From: a virus
Length of the DNA stretch: 49,228 bases
IMG/VR virus record: IMGVR_UViG_3300045258_000056
Coordinates: 1-49,228 of that record
Strand: one strand, 5' to 3'
The translations under genes were made by a program, and so were the position numbers. This document shows positions 8,250-13,032 of this stretch, piece after piece; positions within the stretch are counted from its first letter, which is position 1, and each line of letters starts with the position of its first letter. The notes below the pieces were generated by a model that saw nothing but the letters and a program-made list of their open reading frames with translations, was not told where the DNA came from and did not search any database.

Positions 8250-8716
8250 AAGCCCCGAACCCCTTTGAAGCCAGCCTCCAGCTATGGGGACGTTTGCTGG
8301 GGGAACACGGCGATGGCCCGGACGGCATCCCCCGCGCTGACCAAACGCGCTATCACGCCCTCGTGCGGGCGGCAGACTTCCCCCCTGGTTCCGCGTCTGG
8401 CCGGTCGGCCCGTTCTATGTCCCGCTTACGCCAATCCCCGACATGGGGCTTTGAGCCGGTGGTCTGCACCGAAACCCGGACGCACCGAATCAGCACCCCG
8501 GAGGATTTGCCTTTGGAGGTTCGGCAGGTGCAAAAAGCCTTTGAACGGCTGCATGACTACGCGCCGGAGCTGGCCCGGGTCTTGCTGGCTAACTACCATC
8601 GCCTGGGGCCGCAGTCGGACAAGGCGGATGATTTGGGGCTTCCCTATCGGCGGTACAAGGACAGGCTGAAGGGAGCGCGAGCGGGCATGTTCCTGCTGCT
8701 ATCGGAGGGTGCTTGA
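8246..8716 (+). CDS. Putative late-gene regulator (antiterminator Q-like, sigma-4-like HTH)
   Basis: 156 residues from ATG 8246. The C-terminal 50 residues, PELARVLLANYHRLGPQSDK then DDLGLPYRRYKDRLKGARAG, match the shape of the sigma-region-4-like helix-turn-helix in phage Q antiterminators. It is the last gene before the RNA island and the lysis genes, the usual place of a late regulator. The TGA stop lies within the -35 box of the Y RNA promoter. N-terminal half not recognised; assignment tentative. Confidence 0.45.
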   Translation: MKAPNPFEASLQLWGRLLGEHGDGPDGIPRADQTRYHALVRAADFPPGSASGRSARSMSRLRQSPTWGFEPVVCTETRTHRISTPEDLPLEVRQVQKAFERLHDYAPELARVLLANYHRLGPQSDKADDLGLPYRRYKDRLKGARAGMFLLLSEGA

Positions 8717-8741
8717 CAATTCGTGCAGAACGCCCTAAATT
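8713..8741 (+). promoter_or_regulatory. Sigma-70-type promoter of the Y RNA array
   Basis: Perfect TTGACA at 8713-8718, a 17-nt spacer, then TAAATT at 8736-8741. Seven bases downstream of the -10, at 8748, is the first paired base of Y RNA A, so the predicted transcription start and the RNA 5' end agree. The -35 contains the stop codon of the upstream gene, and the string GTGCTTGACA recurs almost unchanged at the tRNA promoter (10560). Confidence 0.8.
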
Positions 8742-8747
8742 GGCGTT

Positions 8748-8807
8748 GCGGTGGTGAAGGTGTCGGGTTCCTCGCCTGTAGATAGCCCGGCCCCGTTTGT
8801 TCCCCGC
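8748..8807 (+). ncRNA. Y RNA-like element A (minimal)
   Basis: 60 nt. Basal stem GCGG (8748-8751) with CCGC (8804-8807). Above it lie two boxes shared with elements B and C: 5' box GTGGTGAAGG (8751-8760) and 3' box CGTTTGTTCCC (8794-8804), which I take as the Ro-binding part. The upper stem GGTGTCGGG (8759-8767) pairs with CCCGGCCCC (8786-8794) with one mismatch, closing an 18-nt loop. There is no tRNA-like module. Known Y RNAs use a long, conserved terminal stem to bind Ro60/Rsr, and the Rsr gene starts at 9087. Confidence 0.7.
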
Positions 8808-8820
8808 ACAAGTTTTGAAA

Positions 8821-8910
8821 GCGCGTGGTGTAGGTTTTCCGTTACTTCTTCGGATAAAAAGACTGGCGGGTGTAAGTCCCGCCGATACCGGAGACCGCTT
8901 GTTCCCGCGC
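8821..8910 (+). ncRNA. Y RNA-like element B (with a T-arm-like hairpin)
   Basis: 90 nt. Basal stem GCGCG (8821-8825) with CGCGC (8906-8910). The shared boxes are GTGGTGTAGG (8825-8834) and CGCTTGTTCCC (8896-8906). The upper stem GGTTTTCC (8833-8840) pairs with GGAGACC (8890-8896) with one bulge. Inside is a perfect 6-bp hairpin GGCGGG/CCCGCC (8865-8883) with a 7-nt loop TGTAAGT, close to a tRNA T-arm but lacking the canonical TTC. It may be an intermediate between a minimal Y RNA and the full YrlA type of element C. Confidence 0.72.
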
Positions 8911-8923
8911 CCATTGTTGGAAA

Positions 8924-9058
8924 GCTGGTGGTGTAGAGGACGATTTCATCGACTGTTAATCGAGAGGTCGCGGGTTCGAGTCCCGCCATAGGCCGGAAGG
9001 TCAATGTAGCTCAGCCGGTTAGAGCGCTAAAAAAGATCGTTTTCGCTTGTTCCCCAGC
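8924..9058 (+). ncRNA. yrlA: YrlA-type Y RNA with permuted tRNA-Asn-like module
   Basis: 135 nt. Basal stem GCTGG/CCAGC (8924-8928, 9054-9058); Ro boxes GTGGTGTAG (8928-8936) and CGCTTGTTCCC (9044-9054); upper stem of 11 consecutive pairs (8936-8946 with 9034-9044, three of them G-U). Enclosed, in permuted order, is a whole tRNA: anticodon arm TCGA-CTGTTAA-TCGA (8949-8963), AGGTC, T-arm GCGGG-TTCGAGT-CCCGC (8970-8986), acceptor strand CATAGGCC, tetraloop GGAA (8995-8998), acceptor strand GGTCAATG (one A-A mismatch, one wobble), TA, D-arm GCTC-AGCCGGTTA-GAGC (9009-9025). Tetraloop-capped tRNA mimicry is the published hallmark of YrlA RNAs, Rsr partners. Confidence 0.87.
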
Positions 9059-9086: not shown

Positions 9087-10391
9087 ATGCAAAGCAATGT
9101 AGCGCGGCAGTTCCGAGTTCAAACCGCTGGCGGCGCTCCCGCCTTCCCGCATCTTTCCCCGATTCAGCAGCTCCGGCGCTCGGTGCTGTCTTGCCTGTTG
9201 TGGGAGTCGGAGTTCTACGAGTCCGGCCAGCTCATCGCGGATCGCATCGAATCCCTGGCGGCCCAAGTCACCGCCGAGCAGCTTTCGGCGCTGGCGATTG
9301 AGGCCCGCGACGTTCACAACCTGCGGCATGTCTCGCTGCTTCTGTGCGTGGCGCTCGCCAAGCGTGGCGGTTCCAGCGTGGCCCCGACCATTGCCAAGGT
9401 TATTCAGCGTGCGGACGAACTGAACGAGTTCGTTTCGCTGTACTGGCGTGCTGGCAAGTCGCCGCTGGCGAAGCAGGTCAAGAAAGGCTTGGCGCTCGCC
9501 TTCCAGAAGTTCGACGGCTACCAGCTCGCCAAGTACGACCGCGAAAAGGCTGTGCGCCTGCGGGACGTGCTGTTCATGGTTCACGCCAAGCCGAAGGACG
9601 AAGTTCAGGCCGCGCTCTGGAAGTCACTGGTGGATGGCACGTTGCCGTCCCCGGACACTTGGGAAGTCGCCCTGTCTGCCGGTGGCGACAAGAAAACCGA
9701 GTTCACCCGCCTATTGACTGAGGGCAAGCTGGGCTATTTCGCCCTGCTTCGCAATCTCCGGAACATGGTGGAGGCTGGCGTGGATGAATCCCTCATCCGG
9801 GCGGCTATCGTGGCCCGTAAGGGTGGCGCTCAGAAGGTTCTGCCGTTCCGGTATGTGGCGGCGGCCCGCGCCTGCCCGCGCCTGGAGCCGAGCCTTGACC
9901 AAGCCTTGTCGGAAGCCATCGCCGAGTCGGCCCCCTTCAGCGGCAAAACGATTGTACTGGTGGACGTATCCGGTTCAATGGATGCCAAGCTGTCGGCCAA
10001 GTCCGACTTGACCCGCATGGACGCGGCCTGCGCCTTGGCGAGCATGATCCACGGCGACCTGCGCATGTTCAGCTTTTCCTACAAGCTGGTCGAAGTTCCG
10101 CCCCGTCGCGGTATGGCGGGCGTGGATGCCCTTGTCCGTTCGCAGGAACACGGCGGCACGGCCTTGGCTGAAGCGGTGGCGGCGGTCAACAAACTGCCCC
10201 ATGACCGGCTGATCGTCATTACCGATGAGCAGGCGACTACGGGAGGTATCCCGGCCCCGGTGGCAAAGCGGGCCTATATGGTCAACGTTGCCAGCAACAA
10301 GAACGGCGTGGGCTATGGCCCATGGACGCACCTTGACGGCTTCAGCGAAGGCATCCTTCGGTGGATGCGCGAGTCTGAGAATGACACCTGA
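9087..10391 (+). CDS. rsr: Ro60/Rsr-like TROVE-domain RNA-binding protein
   Basis: 434 residues from ATG 9087, Shine-Dalgarno GAGGAGG a few bases upstream. The N-terminal ~260 residues are the helical-repeat (TROVE) ring, with family landmarks SPIQQLRRSVLSCLLWE, KFDGYQLAKYDRE, VRLRDVLFMVHAKPKDE and LLRNLRNM. The C-terminal vWA domain (about 285-434) has an intact metal site: DVSGS (293-297), T358 in GGTAL, D380 in ITDE. Ro60 rings bind misfolded RNA ends in the central hole and Y RNAs on the outer surface; bacterial Rsr works with Y RNAs and exoribonucleases in rRNA and ncRNA handling. Size is near that of other Rsr proteins (around 500 residues), slightly shorter. Three Y RNAs lie directly upstream, an unusually complete phage RNP locus. 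Confidence 0.93.
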   Translation: MQSNVARQFRVQTAGGAPAFPHLSPIQQLRRSVLSCLLWESEFYESGQLIADRIESLAAQVTAEQLSALAIEARDVHNLRHVSLLLCVALAKRGGSSVAPTIAKVIQRADELNEFVSLYWRAGKSPLAKQVKKGLALAFQKFDGYQLAKYDREKAVRLRDVLFMVHAKPKDEVQAALWKSLVDGTLPSPDTWEVALSAGGDKKTEFTRLLTEGKLGYFALLRNLRNMVEAGVDESLIRAAIVARKGGAQKVLPFRYVAAARACPRLEPSLDQALSEAIAESAPFSGKTIVLVDVSGSMDAKLSAKSDLTRMDAACALASMIHGDLRMFSFSYKLVEVPPRRGMAGVDALVRSQEHGGTALAEAVAAVNKLPHDRLIVITDEQATTGGIPAPVAKRAYMVNVASNKNGVGYGPWTHLDGFSEGILRWMRESENDT

Positions 10392-10659: not shown

Positions 10660-10750
10660 GGAAGGGTGGCAGAGCGGCAATGCGTTCGCTTGCTAAGCGA
10701 TAGCCGGGCACGAAAGTCCCGCGCCGGTTCGATTCCGGCCCCTTCCGCCA
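10660..10750 (+). tRNA. tRNA-Ser (GCT)
   Basis: 91 nt with all arms: acceptor GGAAGGG/CCCTTCC, anticodon loop TTGCTAA (anticodon GCT), long variable arm GGGC-ACGAAA-GTCCC, T-arm GCCGG-TTCGATT-CCGGC, discriminator G and encoded CCA (10748-10750). First gene of the three-tRNA operon. Confidence 0.93.
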
Positions 10751-10757
10751 AGTTCAG

Positions 10758-10845
10758 GGAAGGTGCCGCTGGGTTGGCTGGCAGACAGCCTCGAAAACTG
10801 TAGGTGCCGTAACAGGTAGGGGTTCGACTCCTCCGCCTTCCGCCA
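10758..10845 (+). tRNA. tRNA-Ser (CGA)
   Basis: 88 nt: acceptor GGAAGGT (10758-10764) with GCCTTCC (10835-10841, one G-U), loop CTCGAAA giving anticodon CGA, stem ACAG/CTGT, variable arm TGCC/GGTA around GTAACA, T-arm with TTCGACT, discriminator G and CCA (10843-10845). The T-stem and the last pair of the anticodon stem are slightly imperfect. A tRNA-Sec identity was considered because of the long arms, but the loop does not carry TCA. Confidence 0.8.
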
Positions 10846-10847
10846 TT

Positions 10848-10933
10848 GGAGAGATAGACCGCTAAGGAGGCGGGACGGGCTGTAACCCCGTTGGCGCAAG
10901 CCCCGCAAGGCTCGATACCTTGTCACTCCACCA
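10848..10933 (+). tRNA. tRNA-Tyr (GTA)
   Basis: 86 nt: acceptor GGAGAGA with TCACTCC (one mismatch), anticodon stem ACGGG/CCCGT perfect with loop CTGTAAC (anticodon GTA), variable arm TGGC-GCAA-GCC, T-arm CAAGG-CTCGATA-CCTTG, discriminator A and CCA (10931-10933). The T-loop starts with C where T is usual. Last tRNA before the terminator. Confidence 0.82.
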
Positions 10934-11312: not shown

Positions 11313-11649
11313 GGATTCGGCTGGCGCTCTAAACGAGGCAGCAAGGCGGCTGGAGGCTGCGAGTCGCAATTTTGCGACGGCCAACAGTAACCAGTCCACG
11401 GTGACCTTGCAGGCAGGCGGTGCCGGGGTTTGGGTAGCCACCACATGCTGCCTGATTATGTTGTTTTCAGGTCTGATGGGGGCGTTTTGGGTATCCAGAG
11501 AGTTCAATCAGATTGACGCTCAAATGACCACACTCCGCAATGACAATGATGTGATGCGCCAATATTTGAGCAGCATCTATCAGCAGGCCCCATGGCTCAC
11601 AAGGCCCACTGAAAAACAGAAAGAGGAAAAGGCTAGCGGTTCCAAGTAG
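11299..11649 (+). CDS. Single-pass membrane protein (lysis region)
   Basis: 116 residues from ATG 11299, overlapping the previous gene by 14 nt. A helical N-terminus (EAARRLEAASRNF) precedes one membrane segment around residues 46-68 (VWVATTCCLIMLFSGLMGAF), then a soluble C-terminus with a basic end. Its last 17 nt overlap the convergent HNH gene. Possibly works with the preceding protein in lysis timing. Confidence 0.6.
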   Translation: MADAEDSAGALNEAARRLEAASRNFATANSNQSTVTLQAGGAGVWVATTCCLIMLFSGLMGAFWVSREFNQIDAQMTTLRNDNDVMRQYLSSIYQQAPWLTRPTEKQKEEKASGSK

Positions 11650-12268
11650 TCTCTGTGAGCGCCCTTTCTACTGACCATCCGGCCTTTAGTCTGGCGTGGA
11701 GCGTGCTAGCTTGAACTCCAACCTTTCTAGCCCAAACGGCCATTTCGTAGGTCTCGCTATTGTAAGTGATGAGTTTTGCGCTTTTTGGGATGCGTCGGTT
11801 AGCTGATTGTTCTTTCCGCGTGGCCCAGCGGCAGTTTGATGGTTCGTAGTTGCCGTCATTGTCGATTCGATCAAGCGTGTGCTGCGGACTGGGCGGAGGC
11901 CCCATGTCATCGCGCCAAGCTGCGAAGTCATGCCGCCATTTGTCGCAGACAGAAATTCCCCTGCCGCCATAGTTTTCAAAATATTTGGTAGTGGGGTTGT
12001 GGCAGCGCGCAATCATGGCGACCCATACGCTATAAAGCCTGTCCCTGTTTTTACGGCCCGCGCCACCATGGGTGGTATGTCGTTCATCCCGAAGGCACCC
12101 GCAAGAACCGCTTAAACCGCGAGTTAAATTCCCATGCGGGATATCTCGAATCGTTCCACATTCACACCGGCATTCCCAAAGGGTGCATCTGCCTCTTTGA
12201 TAGTTTCGCCGATTTAGCACCGTCCATCGGCCAAAAGTTTGTCCATTTAGATCAATTCGTTTTGACAT
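11633..12268 (-). CDS. HNH homing endonuclease-like protein (opposite strand)
   Basis: 211 residues from ATG 12268 (MSKRIDLNGQTFGRW); the frame is open further upstream but this start fits the family. The N-terminus has LNGQTFGRWTVLNR and a zinc pair CRCECGT...GSCGC, then RLYSVWVAMIARCHNP, YGGRGISVCDKW, then the nuclease part TLDRIDNDGNYEPSNCRWAT, a well-known phage and mobile-element endonuclease layout. The C-terminus has an HTH-like segment. It is the only minus-strand gene within the plus-strand half, which marks it as an independent insertion in the lysis cassette. Confidence 0.85.
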   Translation of the reverse strand: MSKRIDLNGQTFGRWTVLNRRNYQRGRCTLWECRCECGTIRDIPHGNLTRGLSGSCGCLRDERHTTHGGAGRKNRDRLYSVWVAMIARCHNPTTKYFENYGGRGISVCDKWRHDFAAWRDDMGPPPSPQHTLDRIDNDGNYEPSNCRWATRKEQSANRRIPKSAKLITYNSETYEMAVWARKVGVQASTLHARLKAGWSVERALTETTWNR

Positions 12269-12334
12269 GATGGCACCTAGTTTGATGGTTGTCAGCACGT
12301 CAATTATACAATAAAGCAGGAGAGAGTTTTCTTC

Positions 12335-12505
12335 ATGTCGATCATCATCCTTACCCCGATGCGCCCCAGCCCGACACGGCCCGACCCCCTGCCCATTCCC
12401 CCGCCCGAACTTGTGCTGGCTTGTCCGCACACCGAGGCTTGGTACGACGAAGACCAAAACCTCATTTGCGCTGCCTGCTTCGCGGTCTTGGCCGAAGGCG
12501 CGTGA
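12335..12505 (+). CDS. Small Pro-rich, zinc-site protein before the endolysin
   Basis: 56 residues from ATG 12335 with a strong AGGAGAG upstream. Pro-rich N-terminus (MRPSPTRPDPLPIPPPE) and a C-terminal CPH...CAAC that could bind zinc. The stop overlaps the GTG start of the endolysin, so the two are translated together. Function unknown. Confidence 0.6.
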   Translation: MSIIILTPMRPSPTRPDPLPIPPPELVLACPHTEAWYDEDQNLICAACFAVLAEGA

Positions 12506-13032
12506 TAACCGGCGACACCCTGAGGGCCATCTACGGCGACACCATGGCGGACGAAAACGCCTGGTCGCTGCCGATTTGGACGGCCTGCCAGCGGTACGGC
12601 ATCACGACTCGCCTGCGCCTTGCCGCCTTTCTGGCGCAGATCGGGCACGAGTCGGGGCGGCTGCACTACGTCCGCGAGATTTGGGGGCCGACACTCGCGC
12701 AGAAGCGCTACGAAGGCCGCCTAGACTTGGGCAACACCCAGCCCGGCGACGGCAAGCGGTACATGGGTCGCGGCCTGATTCAGATTACCGGGCGCTCGAA
12801 TTACGACAAGGTTGGGCAGGCGCTGGCATGGAACTTCGTCGGGCATCCCGAATTACTGGAGGAACCCGGTTGGGCGGCCCTGTCTGCCGGATGGTTTTGG
12901 GACTCGCGCAAGCTGAACGTTCTGGCCGATAAGCCGGACTTCCTCGCCATTACCAAGAAAATCAACGGCGGCTACAACGGACTTGCCGACCGCCAAGCCC
13001 TGTATGACCGCGCTTTGAAGGTGCTGGTTTGA
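12502..13032 (+). CDS. Endolysin, GH19 chitinase/muramidase-like
   Basis: 176 residues from GTG 12502, which overlaps the previous stop (GTGA); the frame is open to 12289 but that region reads as non-protein. The active-site block LAAFLAQIGHESGRLHYVRE carries the catalytic Glu in HES (about residue 50), followed by KRYMGRGLIQITGRSNY and GWFWDSRKLN, the standard order for phage GH19 lysozymes. It should cut the glycan strands of host peptidoglycan. No signal peptide, so it needs a holin, probably the next gene. Confidence 0.88.
   Translation: MITGDTLRAIYGDTMADENAWSLPIWTACQRYGITTRLRLAAFLAQIGHESGRLHYVREIWGPTLAQKRYEGRLDLGNTQPGDGKRYMGRGLIQITGRSNYDKVGQALAWNFVGHPELLEEPGWAALSAGWFWDSRKLNVLADKPDFLAITKKINGGYNGLADRQALYDRALKVLV

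What the first reader, a model, noticed from the sequence alone, without database searches (positions are those of the whole stretch)
8924..9058. YrlA-type Y RNA carrying a complete, circularly permuted tRNA-Asn
Read from the GGAA tetraloop outward, the module contains all tRNA parts: acceptor stem of 8 pairs with one mismatch, TA at positions 8-9, canonical D-arm with GG in the loop, anticodon arm with loop CTGTTAA (GUU, Asn), AGGTC variable loop and perfect T-arm TTCGAGT. Joining C9027 to T8949 would even restore the fifth anticodon-stem pair (CTCGA/TCGAG), so the sequence looks like a tRNA-Asn cut at position 27/28 and sealed at its ends. An 11-bp flanking stem holds the cut ends. Keeping a readable anticodon loop, as seen here, is more than tRNA mimicry of D- and T-arms would need.
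Basis: partly seen in the sequence, partly recalled or inferred. Interest (0 to 1): 0.88.

Follow-up and report, generated by a model that had tools for sequence, protein, structure and literature searches.

The report
Phage Y RNA containing a permuted tRNA
Next to a phage gene for the Ro60 RNA-binding protein lies a small non-coding RNA whose head is a complete transfer RNA with its pieces in rotated order, including an anticodon loop; relatives in other phages and bacteria keep that loop but change which codon it would read, so it looks like a full tRNA mimic rather than a working tRNA.

Summary
Window 8924-9058 is the third of three tandem Y RNAs between a sigma-70-like promoter (8713-8741) and a TROVE/Ro60 gene (9087-10391). 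Its head is a whole tRNA cloverleaf circularly permuted at 27/28, the acceptor stem capped by GGAA. Among 129 non-redundant permuted T-acceptor-D modules from related phage and bacterial loci, 69 carry a 7-nt anticodon-like hairpin (shuffled mean 17.4, max 27 of 200), with U33 in 65/69. Covariation, the 15-48 tertiary pair (Fisher 2e-17) and pair 27-43 across the cut (73/75) support the fold.

The Asn reading is not conserved: arms carry 37 different anticodons; orthologues in close phages read Thr, Asn or Lys. In the four closest pairs, positions 34-35 differ in 6 of 8 cases against 20 of 312 other positions.

Best reading: a Ro60-bound tRNA mimic extended to the anticodon arm, probably a decoy or docking site for tRNA-recognising proteins, not a decoding tRNA. 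YrlA-type tRNA mimicry is published; the primary papers could not be read, so novelty of the anticodon arm is provisional. New variant of a known kind.

The parts
8713..8741 (+). sigma-70-like promoter (TTGACA, 17 nt, TAAATT) just before the Y RNA array
   Evidence: 10 of 12 matches, 1 found vs 0.2 expected in shuffles; consensus match only
8748..8807 (+). Y RNA 1 (short, no tRNA-like module)
   Evidence: GCGGTGGTGAAG ... GTTTGTTCCCCGC ends pair; folded; boundaries inferred
8821..8910 (+). Y RNA 2, with TTACTTC element and a T-arm-like hairpin (GGCGGG-TGTAAGT-CCCGCC) but no D arm
   Evidence: boundaries inferred
8924..9058 (+). Y RNA 3: the RNA of the finding, carrying the permuted tRNA
   Evidence: Rfam YrlA 35.1 bits, below its 69-bit cut-off; model R1, which was trained on this sequence among others
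8936..8946 (+). 5' strand of the 11-bp Y stem that holds the cut ends
   Evidence: MFE and centroid
9034..9044 (+). 3' strand of the 11-bp Y stem
   Evidence: MFE and centroid
8949..8963 (+). anticodon hairpin: stem 28-31/39-42, loop 32-38 CTGTTAA, anticodon GTT at 8955-8957
   Evidence: family level; in the window alone P about 0.38
8964..8964 (+). position 43, pairs across the cut with C9027 (position 27)
   Evidence: 73 of 75 modules; 42 G-C and 1 C-G of 44
8965..8969 (+). variable loop AGGTC (44-48); C8969 (48) makes the Levitt pair with G9014 (15)
   Evidence: 15-48 covariation, Fisher 2e-17
8970..8986 (+). T arm with loop TTCGAGT
8987..9006 (+). acceptor stem (66-72 with 1-7), one A-A mismatch, capped by C-GGAA-G
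9007..9027 (+). positions 8-27: TA, D arm GCTC-AGCCGGTTA-GAGC, G26, C27
9087..10391 (+). TROVE/Ro60 (Rsr) protein, 434 aa, with MIDAS-type motif DVSGS in its vWA part
   Evidence: PF05731 1.1e-11, 45 bits vs cut-off 23; AlphaFold model matches Ro60 structures

Best explanation
It is a phage-encoded bacterial Y RNA of the tRNA-mimic (YrlA) type, encoded together with the Ro60 (Rsr) protein that would bind it. Its base stem would be held by Rsr (inferred from the known family). Its head folds as a complete tRNA whose chain is opened between positions 27 and 28, where the Y stem is inserted, and closed at the acceptor end by a tetraloop, so it has no free CCA and cannot itself be charged or decode (inferred). 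Shown by comparison: cloverleaf, tertiary 15-48 pair, anticodon hairpin with U33 and purine 37, and free variation of the triplet. Inferred: the head presents a full tRNA surface, anticodon arm included, to proteins that recognise tRNA. Most likely use: occupying or sponging enzymes that act on the anticodon arm, such as anticodon nucleases (about 0.35); next, docking an RNA-decay or tRNA-handling partner onto the Ro60 ring, as PNPase is docked in bacteria (about 0.3).
For: Adjacent TROVE gene with Ro60 fold. Array of three Y units behind one promoter-like site. 129 modules from 96 loci. Anticodon arm enrichment and U33/R37 signature. Helix covariation: 97.2% of cells paired, 234 double changes vs 63.6 shuffled (rows were chosen for having an arm). 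15-48 pair 99 G-C and 18 A-T. Pair 27-43 across the cut 73/75. Hexamers 33-38 identical to chromosomal tRNAs in 45/65 vs 29.8 when columns are shuffled. 37 anticodons and no stop anticodon among 136 arms. 34-35 changed in 6/8 vs 20/312 other positions in the four closest pairs. GNRA/UNCG caps in 50/129. Published: YrlA carries D, T and acceptor arm mimicry and links Rsr to PNPase (PMC8394870); a competitive-inhibitor role against an anticodon nuclease was proposed for YrlA (PMC7790460); phage tRNAs counter tRNA-cutting defences (PMC10264068, PMC11555353, titles and abstracts).
Against: No RNA, protein-binding or infection data. 54 of 129 modules have no recognisable arm, so it is dispensable in many. 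The same arms occur at chromosomal loci of Caulobacterales and Acidobacteria (32 genome loci; some may be prophages), so a purely anti-defence role is not required. The close-pair result rests on four pairs and on cassettes that may have been swapped. Salmonella YrlA is reported not to be cut by the anticodon nuclease (PMC7790460). The window arm is only marginally stable alone.
Confidence: 0.6

Rival explanations
1. The anticodon arm is a passive relic: whole tRNAs (for example from tandem identical tRNA genes, which read as permuted tRNAs) were captured into Y RNAs, and the arm decays over time while D and T arms are kept for tRNA-type modification or PNPase docking.
For: Two tandem identical chromosomal tRNAs score 62.7 bits with the permuted model. 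CCA follows position 72 in 9 loops vs 2.0 expected. D-arm and anticodon isotypes agree more than chance (p about 5e-4 or less), as expected after capture. Leu-type cassettes in Caulobacter/Brevundimonas phages have kept the long V arm and Leu D arm but lost the anticodon arm. 54 modules have no arm.
Against: U33 and R37 are nearly invariant while 34-36 vary, and the stems pair with a Y-specific TTCG 5' strand rather than copied tRNA stems, which implies upkeep of the loop. In near-identical orthologues mainly 34-35 changed.
Confidence: 0.2
2. It is a permuted tRNA gene: the Y RNA is cut at the acceptor loop and at the anticodon stem and ligated (RtcB-like) into a working tRNA.
For: Rejoined cassettes are called tRNA by ARAGORN in 74/75 cases. 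CcrPW and CcrColossus have a cassette with encoded ACCA and a 34-nt acceptor loop and also carry RtcB. RtcB lies next to TROVE in two viral contigs.
Against: ARAGORN also-64 of 75 with shuffled arms. The window has no CCA and a GGAA cap; 50/129 caps are GNRA/UNCG. RtcB is absent from the window and from 36 of 43 records, many of them fragments. Ser and Leu triplets sit on class I bodies.
Confidence: 0.05
3. An ordinary linear phage tRNA-Asn at 8924-8994, as ARAGORN calls it; the rest is coincidence.
For: similar pieces are annotated as tRNA-Thr, tRNA-Ser and tRNA-Gln in phage records.
Against: Rfam tRNA gives no match above cut-off there. The D arm that covaries with V-loop position 48 lies downstream, not upstream. 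The 5' part is the conserved Y element.
Confidence: 0.02

Closest known systems
YrlA bacterial Y RNA (Rfam RF02553; Salmonella YrlA, PDB 6CU1)
   Same: Next to a Ro60/TROVE gene; long base stem; T arm, acceptor stem with cap, D arm in the same permuted order; the whole Rfam model aligns (1-114, E 5.5e-6).
   Different: Scores 35.1 bits, below the curated 69. In the Rfam consensus the strands flanking the T-acceptor-D block pair with each other and run into the Y stem, in place of the anticodon arm; here a separate anticodon hairpin is present as well and falls into insert columns.
Permuted tRNA genes of the red alga Cyanidioschyzon and some archaea (own knowledge)
   Same: The 3' part of the tRNA is encoded before the 5' part.
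   Different: Those are processed to working tRNAs; here the acceptor end is a short tetraloop without CCA.
Deinococcus Rsr, vertebrate Ro60 and Thermus phage phiLo Ro60 (PDB 2NVO, 1YVR, 9L5Y)
   Same: The predicted fold of the neighbouring protein matches them.
   Different: 16-25% identity; phage member of 434 aa.
Phage tRNAs with altered anticodon loops that evade tRNA-cutting defences (PMC10264068)
   Same: Phage-encoded tRNA shape with variable anticodon loop.
   Different: Those are real linear tRNAs.

Membership tests
YrlA / bacterial Y RNA | Encoded beside a Ro60 (TROVE) gene | tested here: met
   TROVE gene 9087-10391 starts 28 nt downstream
YrlA / bacterial Y RNA | tRNA-like module with T, acceptor and D arms | tested here: met
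   15-48 pair
YrlA / bacterial Y RNA | Curated Rfam RF02553 gathering score | tested here: not met
   35.1 bits vs 69; no module in 14 related loci reached it either. I therefore call it YrlA-type, not a member of RF02553 as curated.
YrlA / bacterial Y RNA | Binding of Rsr and of PNPase | not testable with these tools
   needs biochemistry
Ro60/TROVE protein | Pfam TROVE above cut-off and Ro60-like ring plus vWA fold | tested here: met
   45 bits vs 23; the best 13 Foldseek hits are Ro60/TROVE chains
ordinary tRNA gene | linear cloverleaf above the Rfam RF00005 cut-off | tested here: not met
   no match at 8924-9058
permuted tRNA gene | 3' part encoded before 5' part | tested here: met
permuted tRNA gene | processable acceptor ends with CCA or leader/trailer | tested here: not met
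   GGAA cap directly on the acceptor stem in the window; CCA in only 9 of 129 modules
permuted tRNA gene | mature charged tRNA produced | not testable with these tools
   needs RNA sequencing and a charging assay

The most novel reading that the evidence does not exclude
Some members of the family, above all the Caulobacter phage cassettes with encoded ACCA, a 34-nt acceptor loop and RtcB in the same genome, are true permuted tRNA genes of phages, matured by cutting and RtcB ligation on the Ro60 platform.
Probability: 0.06. Interest if true: 0.92.

Novelty: new variant of a known kind. Interest (0 to 1): 0.7.

Why it matters
If right, the tRNA mimicry of Ro60 Y RNAs extends to the anticodon arm in a broad set of phages and bacteria, with the triplet diversifying. 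That points to partners or enemies that read the anticodon loop, and gives a testable link between Ro60 RNPs, tRNA repair and tRNA-cutting phage defence. It also shows that several annotated phage tRNAs are pieces of Y RNAs.

Tried and rejected
Single-sequence folding does not by itself give the anticodon hairpin. ARAGORN on rejoined cassettes is not discriminating (74/75 real, 57-64/75 with shuffled arms). Linkage to RtcB was tested and is weak: 10/71 loci with arms, 4/25 with armless modules, 7/102 without modules. The absence of stop anticodons (0 of 136) is not strong once position 36 is taken into account, since few triplets end in A. The covariance model R1 also rings on tandem ordinary tRNAs, so genome-wide counts with it were not used. 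Chen 2014, Wang 2018, Sim 2018 and Sim 2020 could not be read, and no paper on the phiLo Ro60 structure was found.

Full report
What is there. The window is a 49,228-base virus record with terminase, capsid and portal genes. Its TROVE gene is closest among named phages to those of Xanthomonas phages (about 71% protein identity) and its head genes to Stenotrophomonas phage SOVA965, so a host among Xanthomonas relatives is likely (inference). Upstream of the TROVE gene lie a promoter-like site and three tandem Y-type RNAs. The third, 8924-9058, is the finding.

Anatomy. Going 5' to 3': Y base stem, then tRNA positions 28-72, a GGAA-capped turn, tRNA positions 1-27, and the other strand of the Y stem. 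The chain is thus a tRNA opened at 27/28 and closed at its ends. C9027 (27) can pair with G8964 (43) across the opening.

Comparative test. I collected loci around relatives of the TROVE protein from IMG/VR, GTDB genomes and GenBank phages and scanned for T arm, acceptor stem, short loop and D arm in permuted order, without asking for an anticodon arm. This gave 129 non-redundant modules with a Y-type TACTTC-like element in 96 loci. Of these, 69 have a 7-nt loop on at least 3 contiguous pairs at the correct distance from the T arm (shuffles: mean 17.4, max 27), 40 have 5 pairs (shuffles 2.8), U33 occurs in 65 of 69 and a purine at 37 in 66 of 69. After clustering, 64 of 119 against 16.3. Position entropies follow the tRNA rule: 34-36 free, 37 and 38 restricted (position 33 was a selection criterion in that table, the unselected figure being 94%).

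Tertiary fold. The Levitt pair links the V loop, upstream, with the D loop, downstream: 99 G15-C48, 18 A15-T48, few others (Fisher 2e-17). Pair 27-43 across the cut is possible in 73 of 75 arm-bearing modules against 55.6 after shuffling (p 2e-4); in 14 modules only the cross-cut partner fits, in 1 only the local one. On a 44-sequence alignment the structure has 97.2% paired cells and 234 doubly changed cells against 63.6 shuffled, with the caveat that rows were chosen for an anticodon stem. Relatedness between sequences is not fully removed in these tests.

Which tRNA? Anticodons are diverse: 37 triplets in 136 arms, 17 amino acids. Hexamers 33-38 equal those of chromosomal tRNAs in 45 of 65 cases against 29.8 for column-shuffled loops (reference tRNAs from four genomes), and D-arm type agrees with the anticodon more than chance overall; clear cases are Glu triplets on Glu D arms and 4-nt V loops (L001, L002) and Pro on Pro (L042). 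Yet Ser and Leu triplets never sit on Ser/Leu bodies, and an Asn triplet sits on a Glu-type D arm (L023). The window's own body is not Asn-like. In the orthologous RNA, the window, Olaya, 10KY502B and L006 read GTT, GTT, TGT and CTT in an otherwise constant frame CTNNTAA. In CcrPW and CcrColossus, 34-35 are the only changes in about 80 positions around the arm of one Y RNA. Over the four closest disjoint pairs, 34-35 differ in 6 of 8 and other positions in 20 of 312 (Fisher 4e-6); the number of pairs is small, and free drift at 34-35 in a constrained frame would look similar. So the loop's form is kept and its triplet turns over.

Function. The neighbouring protein has the Ro60 family profile and fold. 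Published work describes YrlA as mimicking D, T and acceptor arms, being modified by tRNA enzymes and linking Rsr to PNPase (PMC8394870), and proposes that the YrlA tRNA-like domain may inhibit an anticodon nuclease (PMC7790460). An added, diversifying anticodon arm on a capped tRNA body fits a mimic meant for proteins that look at the anticodon arm. I put a decoy or competitor role first and a docking role second. Working-tRNA production is unlikely for the window (GGAA cap, no CCA, no RtcB in the record), but remains open for the Caulobacter phage cassettes with encoded ACCA.

Known or new. The Rfam YrlA consensus has no such hairpin, and the window's anticodon region falls in its insert columns; no module in 14 related loci reached the curated YrlA score, while the Rfam tRNA model calls three false linear tRNAs on Y RNAs. 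I could not read the primary YrlA papers, so the anticodon-arm variant may have been noted there. I file it as a new variant of a known kind.

Noticed in passing
L001:1504-1571 (OQ622092 20624-20691); L004:1233-1307; L190:5140-5207; L191:5802-5876: tRNA-Thr, tRNA-Ser and tRNA-Gln annotated in GenBank phage records are pieces of tRNA-mimic Y RNAs, not tRNAs.
   Followed up: partly
L003:1221 and L056:4187 (CcrPW, CcrColossus): A permuted cassette with encoded ACCA after the acceptor stem and a 34-nt loop with its own hairpin; both phages also carry RtcB.
   Followed up: partly
L003:1713, L005:1289, L193:5828, L194:5749: Cassettes with Leu-type D arm and long variable arm but no anticodon arm, suggesting capture of class II tRNAs.
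   Followed up: no
window 10660-10933: Three ordinary tRNA calls after the TROVE gene: Ser(GCT), Ser(CGA), Tyr(GTA), all class II.
   Followed up: no
L019, L043: RtcB RNA ligase directly downstream of the phage TROVE gene, resembling the Salmonella rsr-yrl-rtcBA operon.
   Followed up: partly
window 11633-12457 (-) and 12289-13032 (+): HNH endonuclease on the minus strand and a GH19 chitinase-like, probable endolysin, ORF.
   Followed up: no
arm-bearing modules in many loci: Anticodons with U36 (codons starting with A, the t6A class) are over-represented: 38 of 65 versus 41 of 117 chromosomal tRNAs, Fisher 0.003.
   Followed up: no
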